Below, piece by piece: positions 2,078 through 32,066 of a stretch of DNA of 64,000 bases. The notes beneath the pieces were generated by a model. That model was not told where the DNA came from and did not search any database. It worked only from the letters and a program-made list of their open reading frames with translations. A program made the position numbers and the translations under genes. Every line of letters begins with the position of its first letter. Position 1 is the first letter of the stretch. This DNA comes from Acidimicrobiaceae bacterium (GTDB lineage Bacteria > Actinomycetota > Acidimicrobiia > Acidimicrobiales > Ilumatobacteraceae), in contig CANFGT010000007.1 in the NCBI GenBank assembly GCA_947446815.1, positions 62,001 through 126,000 on the forward strand, in the 5' to 3' direction.

Positions 2078-2079
2078 TC

Positions 2080-3861: not shown

Positions 3862-3874
3862 ATGTCCGAGGGTA

Positions 3875-3880
3875 TAGCGT
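3875..3880 (+). promoter_or_regulatory. -10 box for the thioredoxin-like/selenoprotein operon
   Basis: TAGCGT fits TAnnnT and lies exactly 6 bases before the ATG at 3887, which has no Shine-Dalgarno sequence. This suggests a leaderless start independent of selA-selB. The box also falls in the region that should hold the promoter of the antisense tRNA-Sec gene, so the two promoters may overlap. Pattern-based inference. Confidence 0.45.
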
Positions 3881-3886
3881 TCGACC

Positions 3887-5332: not shown

Positions 5333-5344
5333 CATACTGAACAC

Positions 5345-5875: not shown

Positions 5876-5888
5876 TCGATGCGCCTCG

Positions 5889-5894
5889 TAAACT
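5889..5894 (+). promoter_or_regulatory. -10 box for the histidine phosphatase/MFS unit
   Basis: TAAACT lies exactly 6 bases before the GTG at 5901, with no ribosome binding site between. It fits the leaderless TAnnnT-N6-start pattern repeated across the window. Pattern-based inference. Confidence 0.45.
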
Positions 5895-5900
5895 AAACGG

Positions 5901-6503
5901 GTGACTTCCCCCACTCGCATCCTCATGCTCCGGCACGGTCAGAGCGAATGGAATGCAATGGGTCGCTGGCAAGGTCAGGCCGACATTGAGCTCACAGACC
6001 TCGGCTATGAGCAAGCGCGAAGGGCCACTGAGAAGTTAGGCATGTTCGATGCCGTGATCTCTAGTGATCTTCGACGCTCTCACATGACCGCAACCATTAT
6101 TTCGAACGGACTCGGCATCGGGTTATTGCCCCCCGACGTTCGCCTTCGCGAAACGCATGTGGGTGAATGGCAAGGCATGACCCACGATCAAATCGAACGC
6201 GATTGGCCCGGTTATCTCAAAGAACACAAGCGACCCCCCGGCTTTGAGACAGATGAATCCATTGTTGCGCGAGTCACGGATGCACTTATTGACCTTGCAT
6301 CTGAATACCCAAGCTCTGAAGTCTTGTGCATTGCCCACGCCGGAGTCATCCGCGTGATGCGTCGTGCGTATGGCGCTTCTGATCCACGAATCTCCAATCT
6401 GGGTGGCTGCCATTTCATCGTGCGCCCCGGTCATCCGTCGCCTATCGAAGTGGGCGACGTTGTTGATCTCTTTCAACATGGTGAATTGGGCGAAGAGCTC
6501 TAA
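5901..6503 (+). CDS. histidine phosphatase family protein (phosphoglycerate mutase-like)
   Basis: 200 residues. The phosphohistidine motif LMLRHGQSEWN is at residues 8-18. The second conserved half includes SSDLRRSHMTA, LRETHVGEWQGMTHDQI and the late His in VLCIAHAGVIRVMRRA, completing the RHG...E...H catalytic set of the branch. Members dephosphorylate varied small substrates; the substrate cannot be told from sequence. The GTG start follows a TAnnnT box by 6 bases, and the TAA stop is followed at once by the GTG of the MFS gene, so they form an operon. Confidence 0.9.
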   Translation: MTSPTRILMLRHGQSEWNAMGRWQGQADIELTDLGYEQARRATEKLGMFDAVISSDLRRSHMTATIISNGLGIGLLPPDVRLRETHVGEWQGMTHDQIERDWPGYLKEHKRPPGFETDESIVARVTDALIDLASEYPSSEVLCIAHAGVIRVMRRAYGASDPRISNLGGCHFIVRPGHPSPIEVGDVVDLFQHGELGEEL

Positions 6504-15987: not shown

Positions 15988-16034
15988 GACTAGGGTACTT
16001 GAGGGCTTTTGACTAAATAGGGGTGCTCGCATTC

Positions 16035-16670: not shown

Positions 16671-17738
16671 CTAACGAGCGACGATTTTAAAAATTACCCA
16701 GAGCACTGCGAAGAACATCAGAATATATGCAAAGAGATCTGATGTGGGAATTATCAAAGAGCCGAATTGTGATTGATCCTTCAATCTGATTACTCGCTCA
16801 CGAGAAGCTGTAACGATTCCAACAATTCCTAATATGCCAATAGCAATGGCTGACAATGCTGTGGTATACAGACTTGCCTCAGTGTTTACTGAAGCCCATC
16901 CTTCAACTGATGAAGGCAAAAGCCAAACAAGCGCACGCCCGCCTATCCAGACAAGAACTGTGTACACCAAAGTTACAAACGACAATGCGATTGCCAAAGA
17001 CCCTGCGAGACGCATCACAATTGGCCGTCGGAAAACCGCACTCGTAAGCCACAGTCCTAGACCAAGCCATAGAACCATAATGAGAATTCCACTGCCCAAC
17101 AGAGAGTCTCCCGGAACCTCTGCATGCCACTGTGCTTCCGGATTTCCAAGCACAAGCCAACCTTGATGAACCGTCCCGGTAACTATCAACATTGGAATTA
17201 GTGATGCCAGTTGAATGACGGGGAATTCAAACGATGGCGAATATTGGGCAATTGGTTCCAGTTGTCGAACACAAAGAAACGCAAGAATCAAACTGAATAT
17301 CACCGACACCACAACCCCGGACCCTTGACCTACTTGGGCTTTACTTAAGTCAATTCCCGCAACTTCAATTGCAGGAATAAAGGAACTCACAACCCCCAGG
17401 AGCATCCCTGAAATGGCGGCCATCCAGCCAAGTGAAGCAACAGCGAGACTCAACATGATCATCCCCGTTACGCGACGCCAGATCATGACTATGGAACTAG
17501 TCACTACCGCGACTAACACAGTGATGAGTACGCCAATTCCACCTGGGACATTGGTCAAGTTGAAACTGTTGTGATTCTCGCCAAGAGGACGTATCACAAT
17601 CCAGGGCATCATTGCCCCAATGAAAACCATCACTGCAAGTGTGATGGGAAGCAGAATTCTCGGCTGACCCTCAGAAGACTGGACCACTGTCGTGAACCGA
17701 GGAATTTCAATACTTTTGTTCTGAAATGGATTGTTCAT
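16671..17738 (-). CDS. polytopic membrane protein, last gene of the tubulin-like operon
   Basis: 355 residues with roughly nine hydrophobic segments, beginning after a short cytoplasmic N-terminus (helix at about 28-48). No family or catalytic motif is recognised. Notable stretches are PWIVIRPLGENHNSFNLTN in the first outside loop and DLSKAQVGQGSGVVVSVIF. Its start overlaps the stop of the 85-residue gene by 4 bases (ATGA), so it is translated with the upstream genes of this long operon. Confidence 0.7.
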   Translation of the reverse strand: MNNPFQNKSIEIPRFTTVVQSSEGQPRILLPITLAVMVFIGAMMPWIVIRPLGENHNSFNLTNVPGGIGVLITVLVAVVTSSIVMIWRRVTGMIMLSLAVASLGWMAAISGMLLGVVSSFIPAIEVAGIDLSKAQVGQGSGVVVSVIFSLILAFLCVRQLEPIAQYSPSFEFPVIQLASLIPMLIVTGTVHQGWLVLGNPEAQWHAEVPGDSLLGSGILIMVLWLGLGLWLTSAVFRRPIVMRLAGSLAIALSFVTLVYTVLVWIGGRALVWLLPSSVEGWASVNTEASLYTTALSAIAIGILGIVGIVTASRERVIRLKDQSQFGSLIIPTSDLFAYILMFFAVLWVIFKIVAR

Positions 17739-17992
17739 GAGAAAGGATTCGATGTTCGTGATTCAACGCGAACTGGTAGGTCCCTGATTCCTAGTGCCTT
17801 TCGACGCTCAAGAGTTCCAAGTGTTAGCACAGTGACAAGGCCTAGGGGTCCGAGCAACGCTCCCAGAAGTACTGACGTTGAAATCTTCAAATTTATTGAA
17901 GCACCGACTAACCAGCACAAAGATGTCCATCCCAAAGCCCAGATGGTCGTGACACCAATTATGGCTATGAAGGTCAAAGCCCCTTTGATCAC
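17735..17992 (-). CDS. small membrane protein
   Basis: 85 residues with two hydrophobic helices (about 3-30 and 38-62) and a basic C-terminal tail (LERRKALGIRDLPVRVESR). No family is recognised. It begins 9 bases after the 1039-residue gene stops and overlaps the following polytopic membrane protein gene by 4 bases. Context suggests an accessory membrane subunit of the tubulin-like system. Confidence 0.65.
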   Translation of the reverse strand: MIKGALTFIAIIGVTTIWALGWTSLCWLVGASINLKISTSVLLGALLGPLGLVTVLTLGTLERRKALGIRDLPVRVESRTSNPFS

Positions 17993-18001
17993 AAGACTCT
18001 C

Positions 18002-21000
18002 TTAACTAACTTGCGAGTCATCATCAGGCAAGTCCAAATTGATATCTGAAATTGACATTGCAGATGGAATAAATCCTCTAAATGCGCTCAATGGTGCGAT
18101 GGGTTCTGAGAACTCAATTTTCCAAGCAGCAGCGGTCATTTCTATTCCCGGTTGAACTTGGATTTGACCAGGTCGATTTGAAGAGTTTCCGTATGGTGGC
18201 AACGTTATTTCGGGTATGACTCCACGGAAATTCGTGTGTGAATCACCAATCACATCAGAATCAAAGGGAACTGGCTCTACGGGCATCTGTGAAAGTCCTG
18301 AGAGAAAATCATGAACACTCAAACCAGATAGAGCTCCACCCATTCCACTAACTTCCACAGGTCCAAGAATCTGATCTAATGAATTTGACGCCATATCGGC
18401 TGCAACCAATTCAGCTTTTTGCCGCACCAAATTGTGTTGCAATTTCCCGTCTAACACTTGAACTCTGAAATCGGTTCTTGGGTAGAAAACATCGTCATCA
18501 CTGAGCGGACGCTTGCCAACAATGCTGCCGGAAGGGGCATTATCCGATTCGGGCAAAATATTGTCCCCAGGTCCGATGAGACGGGAATATCTATAGTGAT
18601 TTTCCCATTCACCTTTAAGAATATCGACTATGTCTTGCAACCAACCCGAATGAATTGTCTGTTTCCGGGCATTGAGAAACAGCCGCATTTTTTGTTCGTC
18701 ATCTGGTGTCGAGTTCGCAAGGATAAATGCAGGAGGCCGTCTTACTTCAGACACTCCTTTATTTTCACCGCCAAAAGCAATGTCTCTACCGAATGGCATA
18801 TGCACAACAGTGCGGATTATCTGTTGCCAGTCTTCAAATTGCTCTCTCACTGAACCCAATCGGACTGCTTCAGTAGCAGCGTGTCGACCTTCGAGATATG
18901 CCCGTTCAAATCGATCAATCTCGAGCTTCAAACGATGTCGTGCTTGTACCAAAGCTTTTGCGAGAAGGAATAACTTCACAGCAAGTCCCACAAAATATGT
19001 TGAGAGAAATCCCACCAACAAGAGCAGCGGTAGCGGTGTAAGGAAAATGCTCGCCACTGATGCAGCAATCAACAGAAGGAAGATCATCAAGCCGCGCCGA
19101 GTCCACTTTCTGAACTTCCTCCGAGCAATAGCGGAGGCCTCGTCAGCATGTGGTCGTGCGCTGAGAATTGCAATGCAGTCAGAGAGAATTGATCGTGACT
19201 TATTGAGATTGGTAACCAGAACATCTGATACTCGCCAGAGCAAAGAACCAGTCCGCTTTGCTGACCATTCCGTCCATCTGGAATCCAACTCAAAAATTCT
19301 TCGAGAAATGAAATCCTCCGAAGTTGCACTTGGAAGAAATTTCTTGGCGCAAATATGACCGACATGTACCAACTGGTTTGTTGGGGTATGCAGAAAGAGC
19401 ACACCGTGATCAAATTTGGTACCGCAGAAGTCACATGTCTCGTTCAAACCCCACAATCCACTGACATTTGGATATTCCAAACAGAGTTCTTTATACCGAT
19501 CCTGGCTCTCACCGTATTCACGTTCTATTTGTGCTCGGTCACCACAATAGAAACTCGTCAGCATCACATACTCAGACTGGTCAAAATCTTTATGCGAAGG
19601 CCGATGTCTATCAATATCAGTTTCTATTTTGGGTTGTTCATCTAAATGTGTGGAATCAGACTCTTCCAACACAGATTCGCTGACTTCATCAGGTACTAAC
19701 TGTGTCTCTACTGAAGATGCTTCAGGAATTTGAGGGACCGGAGCTGCCACTTGAATCGTGTTCGGAGCTACGGATTTCAAATTCTGAAGTTTCACATTGA
19801 ATTGTTGAGCACTCTCAACATCAAGAACGCCAATCTGACTCTGGATATCCCGCAAGCCAAGGACATTTCTGTCAAATTCTGAAATCTCAAACGATGCATC
19901 ATCTGGTGATGGACCAATCGCCCAGGGATCTGTGTACACCAACCTATTCGTGGCATTCATCGGCGGCTTGATGGAATCTGGAAAAGCACCACCATCAACG
20001 GAACTAAATGCGACATTTTGAAGCAAACTCCATGGCACGGAATCTCCGATGGGATCAATGTCATCCCCAAGATTCAATTGTCTAATAGCTGAGACAATTT
20101 CATTTTGTTCGGTCTCGGAATCCTGAGGATTGAACTTAAGGAGAATCTGGGAATCTGAACCGAAGGTTGCCCGTTGCACCCAATCTTCAACTTCACCTTT
20201 TATAGATTCAACTAAATCTCGCGGAATTGATCGAAGTGCATCCAGGAACTCTTCAACATAAAGTTTGAGTCCTTCCTTAAATCCCATCTCAGTCGCACGT
20301 CGCTGTTGTGGTTCATTCCAAGGGCTATAGACGAAGCCACCATTGATTGTGAGTGTGGTCAGCACTGATTCCGGAATATTTGTGCCCGGGGAAACTGCAC
20401 GTCCATTAACCAAATCCGGGGGAACTGCCCACGGACCACTAGCGGGGAAAGCCCCCGACAAGACATCATCAGTCAATCGACCTGCACTGACAACTCTTAG
20501 GAATGATCGCGCAAGGCGAAGGGGTTTGTTATTGCCAATTGAAGGATCAACCATCCCTTCGAGTACCGGCGCCACTTGCCAAACAAAACCACCTGAAGAT
20601 GTAATAGCCAACAGTGCAATTAATAGCGCACGATACTCGTCTCGAATTGGTTGGGATGCAACTGAAGTGTCAATTCGAACAATGGGCTCTTGCAGAAGAT
20701 GGACATCCCACACTGGAGCGAACGCCTCCGAAACAACGCCCTCGGCTTCAATAATTGAAACTGTTCCTGTCTGTAGGGAAAGTTTGCGATGCACATCAAA
20801 ATGCTTACGAACTACGCCAAGAATATTTGTTTCTGCGGCAAATCGTGAATGAGCATATTGTGCGAGGTTCCCCTCACGAACAGCCAAGACACTGACATAA
20901 TCCCAGATCTGAGACGTCAAAAGTTCAAAGAATTCGACGTCAACAAGAACGCCATTATTCAAATACTTCACAGATGAAATCTCATCTGGATGTTCTTTAT

Positions 21001-21121
21001 CTACAGAGACCCAGCCAACTGATTGAAGAAGTCCTGCCGCTGACCATTCAGTAAGGACAGCACCCAAATCCTTCTCTGCGGTTGAGAATTCTCCGACGAG
21101 AAGGGTGAGCCTATTCGTCAT
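18002..21121 (-). CDS. large protein with Cys/His cluster and membrane hairpin, unknown function
   Basis: 1039 residues. Residues 1-470 are an unrecognised soluble region that begins MTNRLTLLVGEFSTAEKDLG. A Pro/Ser/acidic linker follows (about 470-530). At 563-591 a possible metal site reads C563-x2-C566 followed by H572, H578, H586, H589 and C591. Two adjacent helices at about 676-725 form a membrane hairpin, followed by a charged helix (ALVQARHRLKLEIDRFERAY). The rest has no motif I know. Its start overlaps the tubulin-like gene stop by 4 bases, implying coupled translation and a shared complex. It could link the filament to the membrane; that is inference. Confidence 0.75.
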   Translation of the reverse strand: MTNRLTLLVGEFSTAEKDLGAVLTEWSAAGLLQSVGWVSVDKEHPDEISSVKYLNNGVLVDVEFFELLTSQIWDYVSVLAVREGNLAQYAHSRFAAETNILGVVRKHFDVHRKLSLQTGTVSIIEAEGVVSEAFAPVWDVHLLQEPIVRIDTSVASQPIRDEYRALLIALLAITSSGGFVWQVAPVLEGMVDPSIGNNKPLRLARSFLRVVSAGRLTDDVLSGAFPASGPWAVPPDLVNGRAVSPGTNIPESVLTTLTINGGFVYSPWNEPQQRRATEMGFKEGLKLYVEEFLDALRSIPRDLVESIKGEVEDWVQRATFGSDSQILLKFNPQDSETEQNEIVSAIRQLNLGDDIDPIGDSVPWSLLQNVAFSSVDGGAFPDSIKPPMNATNRLVYTDPWAIGPSPDDASFEISEFDRNVLGLRDIQSQIGVLDVESAQQFNVKLQNLKSVAPNTIQVAAPVPQIPEASSVETQLVPDEVSESVLEESDSTHLDEQPKIETDIDRHRPSHKDFDQSEYVMLTSFYCGDRAQIEREYGESQDRYKELCLEYPNVSGLWGLNETCDFCGTKFDHGVLFLHTPTNQLVHVGHICAKKFLPSATSEDFISRRIFELDSRWTEWSAKRTGSLLWRVSDVLVTNLNKSRSILSDCIAILSARPHADEASAIARRKFRKWTRRGLMIFLLLIAASVASIFLTPLPLLLLVGFLSTYFVGLAVKLFLLAKALVQARHRLKLEIDRFERAYLEGRHAATEAVRLGSVREQFEDWQQIIRTVVHMPFGRDIAFGGENKGVSEVRRPPAFILANSTPDDEQKMRLFLNARKQTIHSGWLQDIVDILKGEWENHYRYSRLIGPGDNILPESDNAPSGSIVGKRPLSDDDVFYPRTDFRVQVLDGKLQHNLVRQKAELVAADMASNSLDQILGPVEVSGMGGALSGLSVHDFLSGLSQMPVEPVPFDSDVIGDSHTNFRGVIPEITLPPYGNSSNRPGQIQVQPGIEMTAAAWKIEFSEPIAPLSAFRGFIPSAMSISDINLDLPDDDSQVS

Positions 21122-24100
21122 GAAATTTGTTCTTCCTGCTCTCGAACTCTCTTCACAGCTTCACGAACCTGGACATAACCCTTCAAAAGGTCATCCAAAA
21201 TCTCAAATCGCAAAGTGTCTGGCGGGTCGACTTGACCCAGACCGATACGCCAACTCTTCGGGCTCACACCTTCGGCTCGAATCTTGTCAAAAGCTTCGAT
21301 GTTCTGATTCAGATAGGTAATGACGTTGTCGCAGCGTTGCTCCATCGTCTCGCCCTTTGCCTTCTCAGCACGACCCTTATCCATTGTCTCGCGACTAAAT
21401 TGACCTGTTTGAAGGAAGTCGAGCAATTCTCCCTCTACATCAAATGCATCGAGGAGGCCGCCGCCACTTCCATATTCAATAAGAGTGCGATACGCATCAA
21501 AAGCTGACTTGCCCGCAATTGTTGAATCGGCAAACGTCAACACCATCGCTTCCAACAATGCCGGAAGGATGTTGTTGTTATTTGTCTTCGTTAACAACCA
21601 GCGTGGGAATTTATGCACCTGTCCGCCGGCACCAACAATGGTGTTCTGAATCTTGACATCAGCCGTCATGTAACCCAACGAACGTGCAATTGCATAACCC
21701 CTAATCGCAGCTCGACGCAAATCATCGGGAAGCGGAACAAAATTCTCAAGAATTCGTGCACGACGCCACAGCCAGAATGATGCTTGCAACGTATCCGAAT
21801 CATTGATTCTTTGAATTGCTTCGTAAAACGGCTCTGTAAAAGAAGTGATGACACTTGGATGAACTGGATATTTCAAGAACGTTGAAATCAAGACCGATTC
21901 ACTGGACGAAGAATTGAACATTTCATCAAGCGAACCTGGTCGATCAAGAAACCCTTGAAGGATTCCGCGGGTCAATTCCCTTGCTGGGTGCCCGGGACCA
22001 AATGGGAATCCCTGAACATTCAAGTCGTAGTCAAGTGGCATGTCATGAACAGTTGGGTACATGGTTGTGTTGATTTCAACAAGTGGTCGCGATTGACTCA
22101 AGGCCTCTTGCAACCGCTGTGCATACTTCGTCAATCGAGAAGCATGATCAATCACAGGCATGTCAGTTGAAGGATTCACCGCAGAAAGATAATCGCGGAG
22201 ATTTTCATTCATGAAAGTGCTCAGGTCTGTGTTAGGACGCGAGATCCATGCCTCAACTCTGGCAGCAATGTCTTCAACGTCATGTTCAACATGAATCATC
22301 GTTGTTGAATCTGGAGACCATCGAGGTTCAGTACTCTCCGTCCAGATGAATGGCAATACAGAATTATTTTTCTGTTGACCAGCAAAATTTCCTCTCAGAA
22401 TGAGGATTCTTGCTGCATCCACTGAATTCGAGGGCAATCCTTCAAAGCTTGAAACCGCATCCTTTAATAGATTTCTCATGGTTTGTGGCCACGATGCAAC
22501 ATCTTCAAGGAAAAACTCCACAGGACTTGGCATGAATCCGACCGGCACTTCACCACTTGTCTGTGGCCATTCCTCAATGATTGCGTCTTTGCCATTCTGG
22601 GGAGCGAATTGTGTCTGTAAACCATTTAAGGCTTGTGTCAACGCAGCTTCAATTCCGGTCAACATCGAAGTAGCAACGGATTCAATTGTTGAGGCAACAC
22701 GATCACGGATAACTGCTGTCCACTCGTAGGTCACAACAACAGAGGCTGAAGTAATGCAATCAGACACTGGACCACTTCCAATGCCAATGCCGGACTTGCC
22801 ATCACCTGCAAGTTTCTCCATTTCGCCCATGTAGTACTGAATCTGCTTACGGTCTTCGATTGCCAACTGCCGCAACGAAGCAGCACTTTCCAAAAGTTCA
22901 GCACGCATCATCTGAATCATCTTGTTGGCAACTGGAATACTGAATTGTGCTGCCGACTCACTCGCGACATTCATAATTCGCTTAATTGCATCAGTTCCCC
23001 ACTTGGCAAGGGTCTTTTCGAACTCCGCATTTGCATGACTCAGCGAATCAATTCGGGCTTTCGTAGCCTCATTCTTAATTTGTCCAAGCCATGTACTGGC
23101 AGTTTGATTCTGAGAACTTGGAAGACCTTGACGGATGAGTGTCGCAACACGACCATTTTCCGCAGCCTGCATTTCACTGGAGGCAAAGAGAGACGAAACT
23201 TGAGTCATTCCGTCTTTTTCTCGCAATTTGCACTCAACTATGAACTTCTCATAATTAATCCTTGCAAGTTCGCTGATTTTTCCTTCAGGGGTTTTCAGCA
23301 CATCCGAACCATCGCTAGGAAGATGTCGTACTGCAACGTTGTATCCCTCAACAAGTCGTTCAACTATGTTTCGATGAAGCAACTTTGTGAGATAAGAACG
23401 GAAACGATCTCGACCAATCGAAACCGTCACACTTCCAAATGAAGAAGCAACGCCCTTCATGTATGACTTACCAAATCCATATCCACCAGCATTTGCTTTC
23501 GCCTGATTATCCCAGTTGGTGGTAATGAATTCGTGATAGTTCTCTTGAACATTGATGTCGGTGACCACAGCAGCAAGCGCTTCACCAACAGCTCGGTACA
23601 CATTTCGGGAGTTTGACAAGTCAAGTCCGTCAATATTGCGACGGCCAATGACGAAAACACTGTGAGGACCACGTGTCGTAATTGGTACTGGACCTGTCAC
23701 GAGATGATTGTCGGTCGGCTCATTATCCCAATACGCGGACATCAGTTCTGACATAAACGCAGCCGAATTTGCTGTCATCATGTCAGTCTTCACATCTCCA
23801 AAAATGTCTGGAGTGAATGCAACGAGCACAGGAAACTGACCATCATCATCTGTTCGCCTGATGAGGTCAACGACGTCCAACGCAATTCCTGCTCCGGTAC
23901 CACCCGCCATAGAGCCCACCACAATCGTGATCGGCTTGGGAGTTGGTGCACCTGGTGGGACATCTACTCCAAGAAGGCGAGAAATCTGTACGAGTTCTGC
24001 AGCACCTGCTGAACACTCATCGAATGCATGCTTCACACGAACTTTTGCTTTGGTTTGCAGAGCGAGGACTCCAGCCGCGCGACCCACTGCACGAAGCTGC

Positions 24101-24447
24101 CCAGCTCCACTACTTAGTGGAACAGCAACTTCTTCTGGACTTGGGCGCCAACCTACTAGTTCCTTAAATGCAGCCTCATGTGGCGGGAACTTGGACAACA
24201 GTGCTCCATTCAATGCAGCAAAAGTGTCATATTTCAAAGAGACGCTGACGTAATCACTTGTAGGAAGAAATGGAACACTTGGATCTTCCTGCTTAGAAGG
24301 TGTGTCGATTCCTACGAATTGCCACGCACGTGGGAAGTCTCCCGTCCAACCTTGATGTGCAAGGTGGCGTTGTACTGCATCGCGCACATATCGGATGGAT
24401 TTCTGTCCGGATCCTCCACAGCCAATCATGATTACTGGTCTAAGCAT
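21118..24447 (-). CDS. tubulin-like (Tubulin_2 type) GTPase, intact copy
   Basis: 1109 residues. The N-terminus MLRPVIMIGCGGSGQKSIRY is a nucleotide-binding strand-loop as in FtsZ/tubulin. Residues 178-187 (GSMAGGTGAG) are the tubulin signature glycine loop (GGGTG[ST]G type), followed by ALDVVDLIRR and APDIFGD-like sequence (FTPDIFGDVKTDMM). RGPHSVFVIGRRNIDGLDL and GGYGFGKSYMKGVASSFGS follow. The long C-terminal half is helical and specific to this family. The length far exceeds FtsZ (about 400). AGGAG lies ahead of the ATG. It lies 24 bases after the vWA gene. A cytoplasmic polymerising GTPase is likely; whether it polymerises is unknown. Confidence 0.85.
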   Translation of the reverse strand: MLRPVIMIGCGGSGQKSIRYVRDAVQRHLAHQGWTGDFPRAWQFVGIDTPSKQEDPSVPFLPTSDYVSVSLKYDTFAALNGALLSKFPPHEAAFKELVGWRPSPEEVAVPLSSGAGQLRAVGRAAGVLALQTKAKVRVKHAFDECSAGAAELVQISRLLGVDVPPGAPTPKPITIVVGSMAGGTGAGIALDVVDLIRRTDDDGQFPVLVAFTPDIFGDVKTDMMTANSAAFMSELMSAYWDNEPTDNHLVTGPVPITTRGPHSVFVIGRRNIDGLDLSNSRNVYRAVGEALAAVVTDINVQENYHEFITTNWDNQAKANAGGYGFGKSYMKGVASSFGSVTVSIGRDRFRSYLTKLLHRNIVERLVEGYNVAVRHLPSDGSDVLKTPEGKISELARINYEKFIVECKLREKDGMTQVSSLFASSEMQAAENGRVATLIRQGLPSSQNQTASTWLGQIKNEATKARIDSLSHANAEFEKTLAKWGTDAIKRIMNVASESAAQFSIPVANKMIQMMRAELLESAASLRQLAIEDRKQIQYYMGEMEKLAGDGKSGIGIGSGPVSDCITSASVVVTYEWTAVIRDRVASTIESVATSMLTGIEAALTQALNGLQTQFAPQNGKDAIIEEWPQTSGEVPVGFMPSPVEFFLEDVASWPQTMRNLLKDAVSSFEGLPSNSVDAARILILRGNFAGQQKNNSVLPFIWTESTEPRWSPDSTTMIHVEHDVEDIAARVEAWISRPNTDLSTFMNENLRDYLSAVNPSTDMPVIDHASRLTKYAQRLQEALSQSRPLVEINTTMYPTVHDMPLDYDLNVQGFPFGPGHPARELTRGILQGFLDRPGSLDEMFNSSSSESVLISTFLKYPVHPSVITSFTEPFYEAIQRINDSDTLQASFWLWRRARILENFVPLPDDLRRAAIRGYAIARSLGYMTADVKIQNTIVGAGGQVHKFPRWLLTKTNNNNILPALLEAMVLTFADSTIAGKSAFDAYRTLIEYGSGGGLLDAFDVEGELLDFLQTGQFSRETMDKGRAEKAKGETMEQRCDNVITYLNQNIEAFDKIRAEGVSPKSWRIGLGQVDPPDTLRFEILDDLLKGYVQVREAVKRVREQEEQIS

Positions 24448-24471
24448 TGCTATCTCCTAGTTAGATGTTTC

Positions 24472-27222
24472 TTAGTTAGCGAAGGGATTTCGCGGCTTAT
24501 TTTCAGATGGGGGTTCAACAGAAGGCGATACATCCTTCTTCTTGTTCTTCTTCTGCTTCTTTGGTTTTTCAACCTCAGACGAAACCATGGACGCATTTGG
24601 AATTGAGCTAGTTGCAGTGACATTGAACGGATTCTTGTTGACCGAAGAATTATCTGATTGATGATCTACAGAGACCTTCAAATCATTCTTTTCGTGAGTC
24701 TCAGACTTATTCTTCGCTACTTCTACAATTTCTCGAATCGATTCAGGAACAGCACTTGAAACAATTGACGTACCCAAACTCTGCATCTGTCCATCCATGT
24801 GTTTGAAGTCATAGGGGTCGAAGAAAGCTACGACTTCACCTGAAATTGAACTTGTCCCGTTTGCAAGACTCTCGATTTCATTCCTCGAGACACGGAGCAC
24901 CCATTGATTTCGGAGAGCCAGATTTACTAGTCCGATTGATAGGTCATTGCTCATCCGCGAACTAGATGAGCCAAAAACATGTGTATCAGCCGCCGAGGCC
25001 TGTCCAATCGGGGTAACTGTGGACTTTAGAAATGTTCGCAACGGTGAACAGCTAAAGCGGATTCCAAATAGATCGAATTCACGAACCGATTCGCTATTTT
25101 CAATCGCATAACCATCATCAATCAACGCGAATTGGGCGGAGCCGCGGGGTGAAATTCGTCCCGAACTGTCAATGGAGACCGGAATACGGCCACGCCGGGA
25201 GGTGCCATTGAGTCGTGCGAATCGTGTCATCAGTATCGCAAAGCCAGCGCGAAGCGAACCCTGAACTAAAAGAAAGAGAGCAAGAAGTTCAATCGCTCGC
25301 CGAATTCCGGGGCCAACAGGTGGTTCAGTCTTCATGTTGACACTCGCAACATGAGAAATCTTTTTTGTTTCAGACGAGGTCTTATTCGTGTAGGTGATAG
25401 TCAATGGAACGCCGTATGGTCCGTAACCTTTTACTTCAGGCTTGATATCTACTTGGCACGTCTTTTCTCGCCCTCGGGGTACTACGCACTCTTTTTGTTC
25501 GATGACTGTGAACTTCTTCGGATTACGGGTCAGACTTTGATCTCCCGATGAAAATTCAACTTTCGTATCTGCAGCATCTGCACCTGCGAATGTGAAATAC
25601 GCGGTCCTCTTAGTTGTTCCTTTGAATTCCAATCGCTTTCCATCAGCCCCAAGAATTGACTTAACAATCGGTTGTTGGTCGCCGTCAGTAATCTGCACGT
25701 CGTGCAAAAACGTTGGGTGATATGAAATTGAGACGTCGTCGCCCTTTTCATCTTTCAGACCGAGAACGTACCCAAGCGGAAGTGCAGAAATATCAACTGA
25801 GCCTACGGATGCAAATTTTCCGCTATTTGATAAGAGTTGAGCGATGGCATTTTTTTCAACTTTGAAACTATTGTTGCCTATGGACTGAGCAATAATTTTT
25901 TGCTCTTCTTGCAAGTATTTAAAAGTGAATTCAATTGCCTGAATTCTCGAACCTTCTGAAACTCTTGACAACTTTGCTGTCAAACCCGTCGTCTTGAATC
26001 GATCAATAGATCTCAGTGGCTTGTCGGTGCCATCCATAATTCTCAAGGTGGTGTCACCTACAAAACTGACTTTGCCTATGGCGGCCGATGCATTTGGCCC
26101 CAAGAAACGAATCTTCCAATGTCCTTCGATCGACTCACCTTTTTCTCGAAGGACATCGAGAAGAACCTTCGTCGATGTCAACGATGTAGCTGTAACTACA
26201 TCAATAGGGTGTTTCTCTTCGCCTTCAAAGAGAGAGAACGAATCACCCTCGCCAGCAGTTACTACAGTTGAATTGACTCCGGTCTCGGGAGTAGTCACCA
26301 AGAACCTGAACCGAGAGACCGTCTCGTCCACTTGGAAAATAAATTCGTAACACTCTGGAGTTCCGTCGGCACACTGATTCGGATGGACAGGCTCGCCAGA
26401 GATAAGAGCATCAATGAGGCCATCAGCTTCGTTCACCCATGTAAATTTTCCGATGCCAGGCTGCTCACCACATCTAGTCAACGTAAGGCCATCGCTCTTA
26501 AAAAGCCCATCGCGTACTGCAATGATTTTCATTAATTCCATGGCCTGAGAACTGTCGTTCAGGCCAACTGCTTGTATGAATACACCGTTCTCACGAAGTT
26601 GATCGACATAACCACCAGATCTACATAGGTCATAAGAAATTTGCCGTTTTTCAAATTTTGACAACCCTCGAACGTCGTCATAATCATGTTGTCCGTCGCT
26701 AAACCAGATTAATAGTCGACAAGAATCGCCATCGTTGGTTGACTTCTCAAATGAAGCGACAGCTCCTTTCATTGCTTCGTTATAACGAGTGTGAAAGTCC
26801 GTATTTCTCTGTGCTTGTTTTGCAAGTTCTAGAGAAAAATCAGAAATTGTTTCTGAGTCGAGTGACATCCAATCTTGGTGGGGCGTATACCCGTCTCCAA
26901 AACCGGCAATTGAAGCTTCAACATCAATGCGGTCTTGCTTGTCGCCATTCGCCAACGAGGCAAGTGCTGTGGCTGAGGCCTGCAGTGCCTTGACGCGTAA
27001 ATTTTTGGGGTCGGTTCCCTTTGGATTTTTCTTATTTTTAGTCAGGCTGATTGATTCATCAACTAAGAAGAGAACAGAGAGTTTGTGCTGCTTTGAAATG
27101 CATTCATCAAGAGGCTTTTCTTCTTGAATGATTTCAGTTGATGCATGACTCGATGTGGCACCAAGCAATCCCAGCGAACTAGCAATCAGAATCGCCAATA
27201 CTTTCTTCGTAGAAGCACTCAC
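24472..27222 (-). CDS. secreted, membrane-anchored von Willebrand factor A protein
   Basis: 916 residues. A signal peptide (1-28) precedes a vWA domain (about 48-260) whose MIDAS motif is D55-x-S57-x-S59 in LFLVDESISL, with a further FSDGQHD. A beta-rich extracellular region follows to about 640. One membrane helix (about 640-662, IELLALFLLVQGSLRAGFA) and a cytoplasmic part end in a Lys-rich stretch (KPKKQKKNKKKD) and NKPRNPFAN. So metal-dependent ligand binding outside is tied to a cytoplasmic tail next to the tubulin-like protein. It overlaps the upstream small membrane gene by 4 bases. Confidence 0.82.
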   Translation of the reverse strand: MSASTKKVLAILIASSLGLLGATSSHASTEIIQEEKPLDECISKQHKLSVLFLVDESISLTKNKKNPKGTDPKNLRVKALQASATALASLANGDKQDRIDVEASIAGFGDGYTPHQDWMSLDSETISDFSLELAKQAQRNTDFHTRYNEAMKGAVASFEKSTNDGDSCRLLIWFSDGQHDYDDVRGLSKFEKRQISYDLCRSGGYVDQLRENGVFIQAVGLNDSSQAMELMKIIAVRDGLFKSDGLTLTRCGEQPGIGKFTWVNEADGLIDALISGEPVHPNQCADGTPECYEFIFQVDETVSRFRFLVTTPETGVNSTVVTAGEGDSFSLFEGEEKHPIDVVTATSLTSTKVLLDVLREKGESIEGHWKIRFLGPNASAAIGKVSFVGDTTLRIMDGTDKPLRSIDRFKTTGLTAKLSRVSEGSRIQAIEFTFKYLQEEQKIIAQSIGNNSFKVEKNAIAQLLSNSGKFASVGSVDISALPLGYVLGLKDEKGDDVSISYHPTFLHDVQITDGDQQPIVKSILGADGKRLEFKGTTKRTAYFTFAGADAADTKVEFSSGDQSLTRNPKKFTVIEQKECVVPRGREKTCQVDIKPEVKGYGPYGVPLTITYTNKTSSETKKISHVASVNMKTEPPVGPGIRRAIELLALFLLVQGSLRAGFAILMTRFARLNGTSRRGRIPVSIDSSGRISPRGSAQFALIDDGYAIENSESVREFDLFGIRFSCSPLRTFLKSTVTPIGQASAADTHVFGSSSSRMSNDLSIGLVNLALRNQWVLRVSRNEIESLANGTSSISGEVVAFFDPYDFKHMDGQMQSLGTSIVSSAVPESIREIVEVAKNKSETHEKNDLKVSVDHQSDNSSVNKNPFNVTATSSIPNASMVSSEVEKPKKQKKNKKKDVSPSVEPPSENKPRNPFAN

Positions 27223-27557
27223 CTGACAGCATCCTTCGCGGCCGAAATTGCAAGCAGTGCAATATGCGCGAATGCAACCAAAATTACTGCGTATCGAATC
27301 ACTCGCAATGTCGGAGCAAACCAGTCCTTGCTGGCATAGTTGACATCTGCACGCCTTTTCTGATCAAGCAATGCAGTGACCCCACCAGTTAAAGATGCGA
27401 CAACGCTGAGACCATAACCAAGCGCGTTTGAGATGGGAAGAGCCACCAGTGAGAGAATCAAAATTGCAACTGTTGTCCAAAGAAACTCAACGGGTGGGTG
27501 AATCAATGCGGAACTCGTGGGCTGGACAGCAACGCTGCCATTCATCCAATCGGCCAT
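27219..27557 (-). CDS. small membrane protein upstream of the vWA gene
   Basis: 112 residues from the ATG at 27557 (MADWMNGSVAV). I chose it because a G7 run (27564-27570) lies 6 bases ahead, where a Shine-Dalgarno would sit. Starts at 27623 or 27629 would add a Cys-containing N-terminus and place the G7 run inside the gene. Two helices near residues 27-66 and one at about 88-109 enclose a basic loop (DQKRRADVNYASKDW). No family is recognised. Its stop overlaps the vWA start by 4 bases (ATGA). Confidence 0.6.
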   Translation of the reverse strand: MADWMNGSVAVQPTSSALIHPPVEFLWTTVAILILSLVALPISNALGYGLSVVASLTGGVTALLDQKRRADVNYASKDWFAPTLRVIRYAVILVAFAHIALLAISAAKDAVR

Positions 27558-27686
27558 GCCGTACCCCCCCATTGATTGCTCATTGCAATTCAAAAGCCGA
27601 CAGTAGTTCGGTATTTCTGTCATAGCCACATTTAGTCAAATAGTTTTAAACACTCTATTTAGTTGCGTAAAACCATTTACAGATTA

Positions 27687-27711
27687 ATGTGAACATATAT
27701 ATGACTCACAT
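27687..27711. promoter_or_regulatory. inverted repeat in the gap before the vWA/tubulin-like genes
   Basis: ATGTGA-N13-TCACAT, with an AT-rich centre that contains TATATAT. It lies in the 352-base gap between the frameshifted tubulin-like gene and the small membrane gene, where a promoter for the downstream genes would be expected. The gap also contains the M50B remnant. The spacing is too wide for a CRP site. It could be an operator or chance. Confidence 0.3.
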
Positions 27712-27788
27712 GAACTCTTATTTGGAGAAATCCCTGGCCAAATCTGCCATGAGCAGGCCAGTCCGCTGTACGAGAGTTGAGATCCACA

Positions 27789-27862
27789 TAACGATTTCTG
27801 ACCAGTACGGCTGAATGGCGAAATAACCTGCTGTACTACTGAATCTCATACACATCAATGAG
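27789..27862 (-). pseudogene. remnant of the 3' end of a duplicated M50B-like gene
   Basis: The minus strand here encodes AGYFAIQPYWSEIV followed by M-W, matching the last residues of the intact M50B-like protein (AGYFAIQPYWSEIVNWFS), with the nucleotides nearly identical over about 40 bases and recognisably similar over about 74 (compare 31274-31347). A TAA lies in frame a few codons upstream, and the original stop is lost. No other part of the M50B gene is present. It sits downstream of the second tubulin-like gene and marks an old tandem duplication with later loss. Confidence 0.8.
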
Positions 27863-27909
27863 TTCTTTTAAGAAACTCTAAAATCTCCAACACGCTAAAC
27901 AATGAAATC

Positions 27910-30900
27910 CTATGGATTGAGCCAAATTCGAATTGCATTCAGAACCTGAACATACGCACGCATCAAATCCGGGAGCAGCTCGTAAGTCAAGGTGTCTATC
28001 GGTGTCACAGTCCCGTCAGAATTTCTCCAACTCTTCGCATCTGGCCCTGAGTACCCCAAATTCTTAAAACGCTCAATGTTGCGCTGCAGGTACTCAATAA
28101 TCTTCGCACTCCTCTCGAACCGGTCATCACCCGCCACAAAATCAGCCCGAGTTTGGTCCACGACTCGCACTCCGTCGTAATCACCCGTCTCAAGGAAGTG
28201 CTCCAACAGGCCGCCGACACGGAACTCACCATAGAAGCCATCGCCTGTCCCATATGCAATAAGCGATTCATAGGCCTCGAATGCGCTCAGACCTTTTGTT
28301 GGGACATCCGCAAATGCCAACACCATCGACTCAAGAAGCGCAGGCAACAGGTTTCTTTGATCAGTGGAGGTGAGAAGCCACTTCGGGAATTGTTTATCTC
28401 CATCACGATCAGCAATCACATTTTGCTCTCTGTCTTCAGCGGACATCACACCCAGTGCCCGTGCAATCGCAAAGCCACGGATCGCTGCAATCCGCACTTC
28501 ACGTGGCAGGGGAACAAATTCTTGAAGAGAACGTGCCCGGCGCCACCTCCAGAAAGAAGATTGCAACTGCACATGATCGTTATTGAAACCATGAATACTT
28601 CTGCCAAGCGGTTCAGTGATTGAAGTAATCACACTTGGATTTACCGGATAACGCAAGAAAGAAGAGAGAAGAACTGATTCACAATCGGTTGATGTAAATG
28701 CATAATCAAGAGGACCGGCACTATCTAAGAAACTGTGAAGAAGTTGTTCCGTTACTTCACGTGCCGGATGACCAACTGCAAAGGGAAAACTTTGCATATT
28801 CATTGTCAATGACATTGCTTGTGGATGAACCGTCGCGTACATCTTTGAATCGATTTCAATAAGAGGTCGAGACATCATCAACGCCAGCTGCAATTTTTCT
28901 CTAAAGGTTTCCATGCGATGCAGATGGTCAGCCACTGGCGTGCCGGTGATTGGGCTTACTGGATTGAGATACGAACTTAAGCCTTCGTTTAAAACAAAAT
29001 TGACTTCAGTTGCGGGTCGAGATAACCAAACATCAATTCTTTCTAAAAGTCCGTGTATCGAATCGTCAATCTTGATTTTTGTCGAGCGGTCTAGCAACCA
29101 ATCAGGCTCTGACTTATTCCCTTCATCCCAAATCATTGGTAGTAGAGATTGCCCAGCACTCGAATTGCCGAATTCACCACAAATGATCAATGTGCTCGCA
29201 GCTGCAATTGGGTCAAGCGGTAATCCTCCATGATTATCAAGTGTTTGATGAATCAGTTCCCTTGCGCGTTGTGGCCAACTTGTGTAGTCCTCAAGAAAGA
29301 ACTCAACTGGGCTTGGAGCAAATGCAATTGGAACTAAGCCATCATTGCTCGGCCATTCTGCAGACACAGGGGGCAAGCCATCTTGCGGTGCAATCAATTC
29401 GCCGATACGCACAAGTGAGATTCGAAGTTCGGCTTCCAGCCTTGCCAATATCGTAGAAGCCACTGACTCAAGAGCCGAAGCTAATTTTTCTTGTACATCA
29501 GCGCTCCATCCCCAGACAATTGACTTTGCAATTTCGTTGACCGTCTCTTGGATTAGTGCGGATGACGCCTTAACTCTTCTTTTCCGACCATTTAATTGCA
29601 CTCTGAATTTCGCTTCTGCGTTAGCCATATTTGAGTGGGATAGTTGCACTTGTTCTCGCAATACAGATGCACTGTTCATTACATCAGCACGAACAAACTC
29701 AAGCATTAGAAGAACAACTGGAAGACTTAACGTTGCCGAAAATTCATTGCATGAACGAAGTACACGTCGATATACCCCAGATATCCATAATTGAATTGAT
29801 TCGTCATTGAGTGAACCTTTGGTTTCTTTATTCCAAGATCGGCTGATCTGCGCCTGTGCGAGGATTAGTTGTGCCCAGGATTCAAAACTCTGCGCTTCAG
29901 ATGACGGAAGAGAACTATTTATTAATTGAGTAATTTCAGAATGTTGAGATCTCATTTCCTCATTTGAATAAAAGACTTCACTCAGTTGTTTGACTTCTAA
30001 GCCACAGTCAAAAAGAAACTTTTCTTTATTTCTGCGAGCAAGCTTTTCAATTTTCAGGGGAGTGGAAATAGTCTTTGCTTCCATCTCGCCAAAAGTTTTT
30101 ATTGTTGTATCCTCATAACCATGAATGAGCTGCTCAACAACTGAACGCAACAGAAGTTTCTGCATGTAATCGCGGAAACGATGTCGACCGACTGAGATTG
30201 TTGCGCTTCCAAAAGATAAAGCAACACCTGGAAGAGCCTGTTGTGCAAAACCGTAGCCACCAGCATTTGCAGCCTTCAGCATCGGCCAACTCACAGTCGT
30301 GTAGTTATGAAAATCTTGCTGAACTTGTATTGAAGTAGTTATCGCAGCCAATGTGCTGCTAATTGCACGATAAACATTTCTTGAATCTCTGAGATCAAGT
30401 CCATCAATGTTGCGTCGTCCAATCATGTAAACGCTATGAGGACCACGAGTGTGAACTGCAACCAATTGCGGAAGAAGACCATTCTCGGGCATCTCATTAT
30501 CCCAGTATGCGTTGAGTAATTCCGACATAAAGGCTGAAGAGTTCGCAGCCATTCCATCGTTGTGTAAATCACCGAAAACATCAGGCGTCAGAGCAATAAG
30601 TGTTGGGAACGCACCGTTTACATGAGTTCTGCGAATGAGCTCAATGACATCCAACATGATTCCTGAGCCAGTCCCCCCCCGCAATTGAACCAACAACCAT
30701 CACAATTGGATTTGATACCGGTTGCCCTGGGGGAACTTCTACGCCTAAGGCTCTTGAAACATTGGAGAGTTCTCCTCCACCTTCTTCGCATGATTGAAAA
30801 GCTTCTCTAATGCGATCTTGCAGATGCCTTTGCATGGAAAGAAGCGCAGCGATACGACCAACAGAACGGAATTGTCCTGAAGAATCTCTAAGTGGAATAT

Positions 30901-31231
30901 CTATCCCATAGGGATTTGGTCTCCAGCCAATCAATTCCTGAAATTGGTTCGCCTGTTGATTGTGAAGACCAAACATGGCTTCTATCGCGTAATTCAACAT
31001 TTGATAACTATTGAACTGATTTGCGAGGTTTACAAAGTCACTCTGAGGAAGAAATGGAATCGAAGGATCATCGAGGGACCCGTGCGAATCGACCCCGATG
31101 AATTGCCAGGCGTGTGGAACACCCTGATCCCATCCGGCTTCCTTCAATCGACGTACCACTGCATCGCGTGCGTATCGAACAACCTTGTTGCCCGCTCCAC
31201 CGCATCCGATCATGATTATTGGACGCAACAT
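27910..31231 (-). pseudogene. second tubulin-like GTPase, frameshifted at a G8 tract
   Basis: Two reading frames (31231 to 30641 and 30696 to 27910) together match the intact copy from end to end. The N-terminus is MLRPIIMIGCGGAGNKVVRY. The break falls in the signature loop: 186 residues end in VVGSIAGG, and the other frame continues GGTGSGIMLDVIELIRR. The cause is eight C on the plus strand (30673-30680); seven would restore SIAGGTGSGIML and a protein of 1106 residues, almost the length of the 1109-residue paralogue. The rest is intact, so this is a recent mutation, a slippage switch or a sequencing error. GAGGAG precedes the ATG. It lies 28 bases after the M50B gene. Confidence 0.85.
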
Positions 31232-31259
31232 AATTTTCTCCTCTATTACTTAAAACTTT

Positions 31260-32066
31260 TTACGAAAACCAGTTAACGATTTCTGACCAATACGGCTGAA
31301 TGGCGAAATAACCCGCCGCACCGCTGATTCCCATACACAGCAATAAGTGCCCTGATGCAACTAACCGTGCAGGAAGTCCGGTCACCTGTGACATTGCTTC
31401 TGCATCCACCCCACTACCGGGGGATTGTCGCACCAATTTCAATTGGATCTGTGCGAATTCAATTCCGTTCATCGCTAAGAATCCAGCGATTGCTGCGACT
31501 CCCACGCCCACCCATTCCGCAGACACCAAGCGGAGCCCGAAAAATGAAGCAACAACAACTCCGGTCGTCCAGAAGAATCCCCAGAAGTTACGTATTAATA
31601 GGACAATCGCAATAGCCAGTACCGCCATGGAAAAGACAGCCCACACCTGGGAATGGCCCATTTGAATTGCCTGAATTGCAGCAACCGCAGCGATGCTCGG
31701 GGCTGGATACCCCGCTGCTGATACAAGGAAACTTCGGAATCGACCCCAGTTTGGAGCTAATTCAAAGATGGCAAGACCAGCTGAACTGGGCTGAATGAGA
31801 ATGGTCTTTGGTTTGGCAAATAGCGCTCCAGCCATAAACGCGTGCCCCAACTCATGCACGGCAGTCGAGAAATACCGCAACAACATCTTTGCCGGTGATG
31901 CTTCAAGGACAACTCCGGCCGCAAATCCCACAGCCACAAGAAATGCTGATGGTGATCCGTCATGTGGAGCCATCCAATGCAGAGCATCCACTGCCTGAAT
32001 CGGCAGATTCTGATGTGTTCCGAAAAACAAAGAAACAAGGAGTACCGCAACCGAGAGAATCCACAT
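31260..32066 (-). CDS. M50B-like membrane metalloprotease
   Basis: 268 residues, about seven hydrophobic helices. H71-E-L-G-H75 in YFSTAVHELGHAFMAG is the zinc-protease HExxH motif inside a membrane helix, as in the M50B branch (site-2-like). I did not find a clear second-site NPDG motif, so activity is unproven and some M50B members may not be proteases. It is the first gene of the minus-strand operon and lies directly upstream of the frameshifted tubulin-like gene. A remnant of a second copy lies at 27789-27862. Confidence 0.75.
   Translation of the reverse strand: MWILSVAVLLVSLFFGTHQNLPIQAVDALHWMAPHDGSPSAFLVAVGFAAGVVLEASPAKMLLRYFSTAVHELGHAFMAGALFAKPKTILIQPSSAGLAIFELAPNWGRFRSFLVSAAGYPAPSIAAVAAIQAIQMGHSQVWAVFSMAVLAIAIVLLIRNFWGFFWTTGVVVASFFGLRLVSAEWVGVGVAAIAGFLAMNGIEFAQIQLKLVRQSPGSGVDAEAMSQVTGLPARLVASGHLLLCMGISGAAGYFAIQPYWSEIVNWFS

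What the first reader, a model, noticed from the sequence alone, without database searches (positions are those of the whole stretch)
16671..32066. Large tubulin-like/vWA/M50B operon: candidate membrane-remodelling system with unassigned parts
One minus-strand run encodes a membrane metalloprotease-like protein, two 1100-residue tubulin-like GTPases, a secreted vWA protein with a cytoplasmic Lys-rich tail, a 1039-residue protein with a Cys/His cluster and membrane hairpin, and three small or polytopic membrane proteins. Several neighbours overlap by ATGA. From memory, Makarova and Koonin described FtsZ/tubulin-like families tied to vWA proteins and proposed membrane remodelling; this locus differs in having two GTPases, an M50B-like protein and unrecognised partners. 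The layout suggests an outside sensor (vWA) linked through the membrane to a cytoplasmic filament.
Basis: partly seen in the sequence, partly recalled or inferred. Interest (0 to 1): 0.88.

Follow-up and report, generated by a model that had tools for sequence, protein, structure and literature searches.

The report
Tubulin-like operon with paired tail codes
This bacterial gene cluster makes a tubulin-like protein, an outward-facing sensor-type protein and a membrane partner; it belongs to a known kind of cluster, but the last three amino acids of the tubulin-like protein and of its partner change together from species to species, which suggests that both ends plug into the same socket and gives a direct handle on how such clusters work.

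Summary
The operon is real, but one of the two 'GTPases' is broken: tub1 is two ORFs (30641-31231, 27910-30696) split at a G8 run. It is the fast-evolving orthologue of the single tubulin gene of a sister genome and looks like a leftover allele. The intact copy (21118-24447) has a confidently predicted FtsZ/tubulin fold. vWA protein - tubulin-like - big membrane protein is a conserved actinobacterial core, already within the published FtsZl1/vWA (2010) and tubulin/GAP1-N2 (2020) systems; the window lacks GAP1, FNIII and DO-GTPase. M50B and two tubulins are not conserved. New here: tubulin-like and big proteins, without detectable sequence homology, share a locus-specific C-terminal peptide (window QIS/QVS; sister TVA/VVA; others PEF/PEF, RG/RG, EVF/EVF). 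Last residue identical in 36 of 49 dereplicated loci (5.7 expected); 0 of 5000 permutations; 26 wins, 0 losses, 5 ties among 31 nearest-relative pairs; replicated in 10 further loci; not detected in 10 loci of sister types. A second, weaker code links the vWA tail and accessory membrane proteins (NPF here; DPF, PPPRP elsewhere). I infer a locus-encoded reader of both tails, like alpha-tubulin/EB1 -EEY read by CAP-Gly; reader and biological role are not shown.

The parts
31260..32066 (-). M50B-like membrane metalloprotease (HELGH); lineage-specific accessory
   Evidence: PF13398 E 1.4e-18; 83% identical in G011, 55% in G014 without the operon
30641..31231 (-). tub1, N-terminal piece (196 aa) of the broken tubulin-like copy
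   Evidence: PF13809 positions 1-173
27910..30696 (-). tub1, C-terminal piece (928 aa); ends WLNP, which does not match the big protein's QVS
   Evidence: PF13809 positions 172-355; groups with G011 tubulin, SH-aLRT 99, quick tree without bootstrap; about 2x faster; C end
30673..30680 (-). G8 homopolymer inside the GTP-binding motif, site of the frame change in tub1
   Evidence: longest C/G run of the window
27789..27863 (-). 3' remnant of an M50B gene, between tub1 and the small TM gene
   Evidence: 86.7% identical over 75 bp to 31274-31348;
27219..27629 (-). small two-TM protein upstream of vWA (real start perhaps near 27557, by comparison with G011)
   Evidence: a small TM protein directly upstream of vWA was called in 31 of 76 loci, but by sequence only the G011 one is recognisably related
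24472..27222 (-). vWA protein: signal peptide, extracellular vWA with MIDAS residues D55/S57/S59, T145, D176, one TM 646-664, cytoplasmic Lys-rich tail with NPF at residues 864 and 912
21118..24447 (-). tub2: intact tubulin-like GTPase (1109 aa), PF13809
   Evidence: E 1.8e-36; model m09215bb5ea9f, FtsZ/tubulin fold
21121..21129 (-). C-terminal peptide QIS of tub2, matching QVS of big
18002..21121 (-). big: third core protein, 1039 aa, TM hairpin about 677-725, Cys/His cluster found only here and in G011 among 49
   Evidence: family HMM hits 83 ORFs; no Pfam family; model pLDDT 78.5
18005..18013 (-). C-terminal peptide QVS of big
17735..17992 (-). small two-TM protein (tm85) whose C end is ...SNPFS
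16671..17738 (-). polytopic membrane protein, about 9 TM, N end MNNPFQ
   Evidence: 76% identical in G011

Best explanation
A membrane-attached tubulin-superfamily assembly. Shown by computation: the GTPase has the FtsZ/tubulin fold; it is encoded with a one-TM, outward-facing vWA protein and an integral-membrane partner (big); the extreme C-termini of GTPase and big co-vary from locus to locus down to the last about three residues. Inferred: both C-tails are read by one pocket encoded in the same operon, so that big and the GTPase are brought to, or compete for, the same site; big would then be the membrane anchor, cap or nucleator of the filament. Also inferred: the vWA ectodomain binds an outside or wall ligand and its cytoplasmic tail, with the tails of the accessory membrane proteins, carries a second locus-specific short motif (NPF here) that holds the membrane components together. 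Ligand binding outside would change assembly or GTPase state at the inner membrane face. The likely role is an inducible cortical assembly in conflict or envelope stress rather than division, because the genome has a separate FtsZ-type gene, the operon is patchy and exchanged in a variable site, and related systems sit with conflict or defence genes. In this genome a second version has entered beside an older one, leaving tub1 as a decaying remnant.
For: C-tail co-variation: last residue identical in 36 of 49 dereplicated loci against 5.7 expected from the residue frequencies; last-three BLOSUM62 sum 286 against -91 +- 28 for permuted pairing, 0 of 5000; fades by position -8. Paired nearest relatives with a change: 26 wins, 0 losses, 5 ties of 31, p 3e-8. 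Further genomes: 10 loci under 60% identical to any used, 53 against -21 +- 15, 0 of 5000. Protein level: of 69 identical residues in the last three positions, 37 use a different synonymous codon. Not seen for tub-vWA or big-vWA (46 loci) or for GAP1, FNIII, DO-GTPase against tub or big (13-16 loci). Fold. Core co-occurrence. Second code: [DNS]P[FW] 44 times in 46 vWA tails against 4.5 +- 2.1 in shuffles, 20 of 46 against 13 of 404 flanking ORFs; in the window 4 NPF in three operon proteins and none in 15,815 aa of other ORFs; shared 3-mers of vWA and accessory tails within 27 loci 126 against 67 +- 10 permuted and 100 +- 9 residue-shuffled. Separate PF00091 gene. Variable site. GAP1/DO-GTPase module of relatives. 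Defence neighbours of a more distant trio on Thermus/Meiothermus plasmids.
Against: No reader domain was found: a scan for co-varying columns was inconclusive. No filament, binding or GTPase data for this family. No significant tail co-variation in 10 sister-type loci, some of them close to each other (737 of 5000), and a Rhodococcus type-A locus does not match (RGAI/GFRF). In the further genomes only 4 of 10 share the last residue exactly. Defence is inferred from neighbours of distant relatives whose third gene has no hit with the big HMM; PADLOC gives nothing for the window operon but one weak hit (ZorB, E 0.045). The one experiment on a Tubulin_2 gene that I met, Synechocystis sll0445, found impaired phototaxis and altered PSII electron transport, not defence (PMC9880817, section read). 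Co-variation of tails could reflect shared degradation rather than assembly.
Confidence: 0.47

Rival explanations
1. Big is itself a degenerate tubulin-superfamily subunit, so tub and big form a mixed filament and the shared tail is a common filament tail, as in heterodimeric tubulins.
For: Foldseek of the big model lists microtubule tubulins among weak hits (7kzm_B2 E 0.30, prob 0.51). In another operon type the gene at the same place begins with a GLGxFG loop, and one member reaches the Tubulin_2 cut-off over positions 256-355 (L160, 36.8 bits, cut-off 27; L158 19.7 bits, below it; the other three of that type scanned, L162, L164 and L165, no hit); an alignment that includes them runs along tub over 272 columns (hhalign E 0.0019, probability 14%).
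Against: No PDB hit of big at E <= 0.001 and the best rows are pore-forming-toxin helices; hhalign finds no tub-big homology and joins the other third-gene family to big only over a 33-column helical stretch (probability 31%).
Confidence: 0.2
2. The shared tail is a co-degradation or processing signal that keeps tub and big in balance, read by a locus protease (for example M50B here).
For: C-terminal tails are common degrons (recalled); 30 of 42 big and 31 of 44 tub C-ends are hydrophobic against 67 of 352 control ORFs.
Against: M50B relatives are in 2 of 94 loci only; tails vary widely (QIS, RG, GD, PEF), which does not suit one host protease; no protease was recognised in the conserved core.
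Confidence: 0.15
3. Plain reading of the 2010 and 2020 papers: a membrane-remodelling or conflict machine in which the tails have no special role.
For: Known FtsZl1-vWA operons (PMC2875224) and actinobacterial tubulin-vWA systems (PMC7159879).
Against: The tail co-variation needs an explanation that this reading does not give.
Confidence: 0.1
4. Artefact: the tail match comes from nucleotide constraints at gene ends or from phylogeny.
For: The big ORF as called starts within 10 bp of, or inside, the tub end in 46 of 49 loci.
Against: Synonymous codons differ in 37 of 69 matches; the big end lies a whole gene away from the tub end; the paired relatives test gives 26 to 0; the other operon proteins tested do not show it.
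Confidence: 0.03

Closest known systems
FtsZ-like 1 (FtsZl1) / Tubulin_2 PF13809 operons with vWA proteins (Makarova and Koonin 2010, PMC2875224)
   Same: Tubulin_2 N-terminal domain, long helical middle, helical C-terminal region; vWA partner with MIDAS; membrane proteins around; separate FtsZ
   Different: No OmpA, protein kinase or P-loop GTPase was recognised among the operon proteins; the paired C-terminal tail code is not described in the parts that I read (2 of 5 parts and passages)
Actinobacterial tubulin-containing GAP1-N2 / DO-GTPase systems (Kaur and others 2020, PMC7159879)
   Same: Tubulin with helical C-terminal domain plus membrane-bound vWA protein; 29 of the 51 loci with at least 9 kb downstream hold the GAP1 gene behind the same core
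   Different: No GAP1, FNIII or DO-GTPase in the window or in 22 of those 51 loci without the GAP1 gene; the core is separable. The main text holds none of the terms C-terminal motif, C-terminal tail, linear motif, NPF, DPF
alpha-tubulin / EB1 -EEY motif read by CAP-Gly domains (PMC3303835)
   Same: A tubulin and an unrelated partner end in the same short peptide; one replicated locus even ends EIEY/PLEY (L145)
   Different: Here the peptide differs from locus to locus; no CAP-Gly domain found; functional analogy only
Synechocystis sll0445-sll0447 cluster (Tubulin_2, FtsA-type and DivIC-type proteins; PMC9880817)
   Same: A Tubulin_2 protein in a gene cluster; mutants have impaired phototaxis and altered PSII electron transport, so a Tubulin_2 gene does matter to a cell
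   Different: Partners named there are FtsA- and DivIC-type, no vWA is mentioned; its tails were not examined here

Membership tests
FtsZl1 / Tubulin_2 | Tubulin_2 domain above the curated cut-off | tested here: met
   tub2 126.6 bits, cut-off 27
FtsZl1 / Tubulin_2 | FtsZ/tubulin fold with GTP-binding glycine loop | tested here: met
   loop reads AGGTGAG, a variant of the printed GGGTG(S/T)G
FtsZl1 / Tubulin_2 | neighbouring vWA gene | tested here: met
FtsZl1 / Tubulin_2 | GTP hydrolysis and polymerisation | not testable with these tools
   no biochemistry
GAP1-N2 / DO-GTPase conflict system | GAP1 protein | tested here: not met
   no Pfam GAP1 hit among operon proteins, no hit of a GAP1 HMM built here in the window ORFs
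GAP1-N2 / DO-GTPase conflict system | DO-GTPase and FNIII-repeat protein | tested here: not met
GAP1-N2 / DO-GTPase conflict system | tubulin and vWA components | tested here: met
CAP-Gly / EEY recognition | CAP-Gly reader domain in the locus | tested here: not met
   no such Pfam hit among operon proteins
CAP-Gly / EEY recognition | shared C-terminal peptide on a tubulin and a partner | tested here: met
Anti-phage defence system | protection against phage | not testable with these tools
   no experiment; PADLOC: one hit at E <= 0.1 for ten proteins, ZorB at 0.045

The most novel reading that the evidence does not exclude
Actinobacteria have a locus-coded counterpart of the tubulin-tail recognition system: a tubulin-superfamily filament and its membrane partner, perhaps itself a degenerate tubulin, carry the same private C-terminal peptide read by an operon-encoded receptor, while a second private motif (NPF, DPF, PPPRP, FG) clusters the vWA receptor and other membrane proteins. 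Each locus keeps its own pair of passwords, so that co-resident or incoming versions stay insulated; tub1 in the window is a version left without its partner.
Probability: 0.3. Interest if true: 0.9.

Novelty: new variant of a known kind. Interest (0 to 1): 0.74.

Why it matters
The FtsZl1/vWA operons have been known since 2010. In the listings of the searches I ran I met one experiment on a Tubulin_2 gene, the Synechocystis sll0445 mutant (PMC9880817), and none on a vWA-tubulin operon of this type. The tail co-variation names two interacting or co-read proteins and the exact residues, so the question of what this cytoskeletal system does can be entered by three-residue swaps. It also separates the conserved core from the GAP1/DO-GTPase module and corrects the picture of a two-GTPase machine.

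Tried and rejected
Two working GTPases as a dimer: rejected; tub1 is frameshifted, has 150 unique residues against 74 for its G011 orthologue with tub2 as outgroup (91:50, 88:46 and 88:57 with three other outgroups), departs at 4 of 33 near-invariant columns (the 51 other rows: median 0, maximum 4), and no other locus was called with two. Programmed frameshift at the G8 run: not supported; G runs at this motif are at most 5 in the 51 tubulin genes where the motif was found, and the one other gene broken near there that I looked at (G821) has no G run in the 150 bases printed. Sequencing error cannot be excluded. General hypervariability of the core: not supported as a rule; in several close pairs (L026/L027, L083/L091, L070/L094) the core is as conserved as its flanks, though in L047/L055 vWA and big (62-63%) lag behind the tubulin (84%) and flanks (83-95%). 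The 34-51% identity of the core proteins between the window and G011, against 96-98% for the outer flanks, therefore points to replacement of one version by another. Zn cluster as a family feature: rejected, 2 of 49. Big homologous to tub or vWA by profiles: not found. Tail code in sister types: not detected, 3 of 10 last residues identical, 737 of 5000. PDB profile search of big gave helical or membrane segments, best E 2.7e-5 to a chain named sc-CC-6-95. Rows dropped: one search used 71 of 94 loci (both genes complete) and 49 after 60% dereplication (last residue identical in 58 of the 71); one search used 27 of 34 loci with callable accessory tails (67 had vWA and tub). The alignments for structure prediction left out the mycobacterial rows by my choice and also L095, L097, L107, L112 (tub) and L040 (big): 50 of 59 references used for tub, 48 of 58 for big, 38 of 46 for vWA, the window row added to each. 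The TM calls are a simple 19-residue hydropathy window. Odds changed on checking: best explanation from 0.50 to 0.47, because I had overlooked the Synechocystis experiment, which speaks for a non-defence role of one Tubulin_2 gene.
Full report
What is there. On the minus strand from 32066 to 16671 lie, in order of transcription: M50B; tub1 as two out-of-frame ORFs; a small two-TM protein; a vWA protein; tub2; big; a second small TM protein (tm85); a polytopic protein. G+C is 45-48% in the 2-kb windows of 14-34 kb against 51-55% elsewhere in the window. The intact tub2 hits Tubulin_2 at 126.6 bits and its AlphaFold2 model (pLDDT 89, pTM 0.84) matches FtsZ, CetZ, tubulin and TubZ in the PDB (32 matches at E <= 0.001; probability 1.00 in the 50 printed rows). 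The vWA family has conserved MIDAS residues and conserved cysteines; the window's member has one TM segment; 27 of 39 family members hit VWA_2. Big has no Pfam family: the window's member has no hit, and of 49 members scanned at most 3 share any hit.

The broken copy. tub1 changes frame at eight G within the GTP-binding motif, the longest C/G run of the 64 kb. In a quick tree of 30 rows it groups with the single tubulin of the sister genome G011 (SH-aLRT 99), with tub2 outside; it has 150 unique residues against 74 for its orthologue. A 3' remnant of M50B follows it (75 bp, 86.7% identical). G011 has one tubulin and otherwise the same order at the same place. I read this as two tandem versions of the operon, the older one largely deleted. 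The site lies between a glnA-like gene and an amidohydrolase; of the 12 genus relatives (of 22 searched) in which both flanks lie on one contig only G011 has the operon, and G014 has M50B alone. Tubulin_2 is rare: 3 of 61 genomes, the own one included, and 14 of 296 genomes of the class, the own one included, with the tub2 protein as query.

The core is conserved and known. Of 80 loci fetched from named genomes, 76 gave a callable tubulin gene; vWA was called in 66 and big in 67 of these. Of 51 with at least 9 kb downstream, 29 hold the GAP1 gene; in the one locus scanned with Pfam (L070) the following genes are an FNIII-like protein (below the cut-off), GAP1-N2 with GAP1-M, and a DO-GTPase2-like protein below its cut-off. 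This is the actinobacterial tubulin system of PMC7159879 (section 29 and passages read). The other 22, like the window, lack the GAP1 gene there. The wider kind is that of PMC2875224 (parts 1 and 2 of 5 of the text read, plus passages). A PF00091 (FtsZ-type) gene lies on another contig of the genome.

The tail code. The C-termini of tub and big match within a locus: window QIS/QVS, G011 TVA/VVA, L026 PEF/PEF, L043 RG/RG, L045 YG/YG, L067 EVF/EVF, L050 DGD/EGD. In 49 loci dereplicated at 60% tubulin identity (from 71 with both genes complete, of 94) the last residue is identical in 36 (5.7 expected from the residue frequencies), position -2 in 19, -3 in 14, falling to background by -8. The last-three score is 286 against -91 +- 28 under permuted pairing (0 of 5000). 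Controls: tub against vWA 249 of 2000, big against vWA 1374 of 2000 (46 loci); GAP1, FNIII and DO-GTPase (15, 16 and 13 loci) show nothing; the 309-aa protein of the GAP1 module reaches 376 of 3000 against tub and 80 of 3000 against big. Of 69 identical residues in the last three positions 37 have different synonymous codons. Among 31 disjoint nearest-relative pairs with a change the matched pairing wins 26, loses 0, ties 5 (p 3e-8). A replication set of 16 loci from further genomes contained 10 under 60% identical to any used, two of them with broken tubulin: 53 against -21 +- 15, 0 of 5000, last residue identical in 4 of 10. Against: a Rhodococcus plasmid locus does not match, and 10 loci of sister types, three Thermus/Meiothermus plasmids among them and some close to each other, show no significant code. 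So the code belongs, as far as seen, to the window's own family of operons.

The second code. Cytoplasmic tails of membrane proteins carry short motifs that differ between loci: in the window NPF twice in the vWA tail, once at the C end of tm85 and once at the N end of the polytopic protein, none in 15,815 aa of other window ORFs; in G011 DPFA ends both vWA and the tm85 homologue; in L043 DDLPF ends two proteins; PPPRP or a close variant occurs in three proteins each of L062 and L113. Counts: [DNS]P[FW] 44 in 46 tails against 4.5 +- 2.1; 20 of 46 tails against 13 of 404 flanking ORFs. Within-locus sharing of 3-mers exceeds permuted pairing (0 of 5000) and, less strongly, residue shuffles (3 of 2000), so part of the effect is composition. 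That these tails are cytoplasmic rests on hydropathy only. The motifs recall endocytic NPF/DPF/DPW and SH3 ligands (recalled, no call).

How it may work. Two proteins without detectable homology that keep the same last three residues while these change between relatives must, I think, be read by a common partner that changes with them, hence one encoded in the locus. The known parallel is alpha-tubulin and EB1, both ending -EEY and both read by CAP-Gly proteins (PMC3303835, abstract and passages). Big may also be a degenerate tubulin: weak structural matches, and in another operon type the third gene has partial Tubulin_2 similarity above the cut-off in one of the five members of that type scanned, but profiles do not join big to tub. 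A conflict role is suggested by the variable site, the version replacement, the GAP1 module of relatives and, in Thermus, Allomeiothermus and Meiothermus plasmids, a vWA-tubulin-third-gene trio (third gene without a hit to the big HMM) beside brxL and other genes of a defence island; none of this is proof. Against it stands the only experiment on a Tubulin_2 gene that I met: mutants of Synechocystis sll0445 have impaired phototaxis and altered PSII electron transport (PMC9880817, section 9 read).

Verdict. The finding is real but belongs to a known kind; two of its distinctive claims fall. None of the listings of my searches in the open-access library showed a description of the paired tail codes; I read only parts of six of the papers, and subscription journals and preprints were not searchable.

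Noticed in passing
window 13951-16032: Castor/Pollux-type ion channel protein (PF06241 E 2.7e-9) next to the operon; no homologue among the ORFs of the G011 locus.
   Followed up: partly
window 3766-3861: Selenocysteine tRNA gene (ARAGORN and Rfam).
   Followed up: no
L152, L153, L154: vWA - tubulin-like - third gene trio beside brxL on Thermus/Allomeiothermus/Meiothermus plasmids, with RecQ-type helicase, DUF1156, Swt1-HEPN or HmaC-like genes nearby in one or another: a candidate defence-island version.
   Followed up: partly
L164, L165, L158, L160, L162: Operon type in which the gene after the tubulin-like gene begins with a GLGxFG loop (seen in L158, L162, L164, L165); one member, L160, is over the Tubulin_2 cut-off: a possible second tubulin subunit.
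   Followed up: partly
L168, L169: Two ORFs of about 500-570 aa near each other with Tubulin_2 matches; in L169 both have a GGGTGSG/AGGTGSG motif, in L168 one; a P-loop GTPase-like gene is close (my naming).
   Followed up: no
L121 (G001) 1911-5912: The same chromosomal site holds an ATPase-like gene, apparently in pieces, and other genes instead of the tubulin operon, as in a variable island (my naming from sequence).
   Followed up: no
big and tub C-ends, 42 and 44 rows: C-terminal residues are mostly hydrophobic (30 of 42 and 31 of 44 against 67 of 352 control ORFs).
   Followed up: partly
L149, L139, L145: Strong tail matches in the replication set: RSRA/RSRA, REFL/REFL, EIEY/PLEY.
   Followed up: yes
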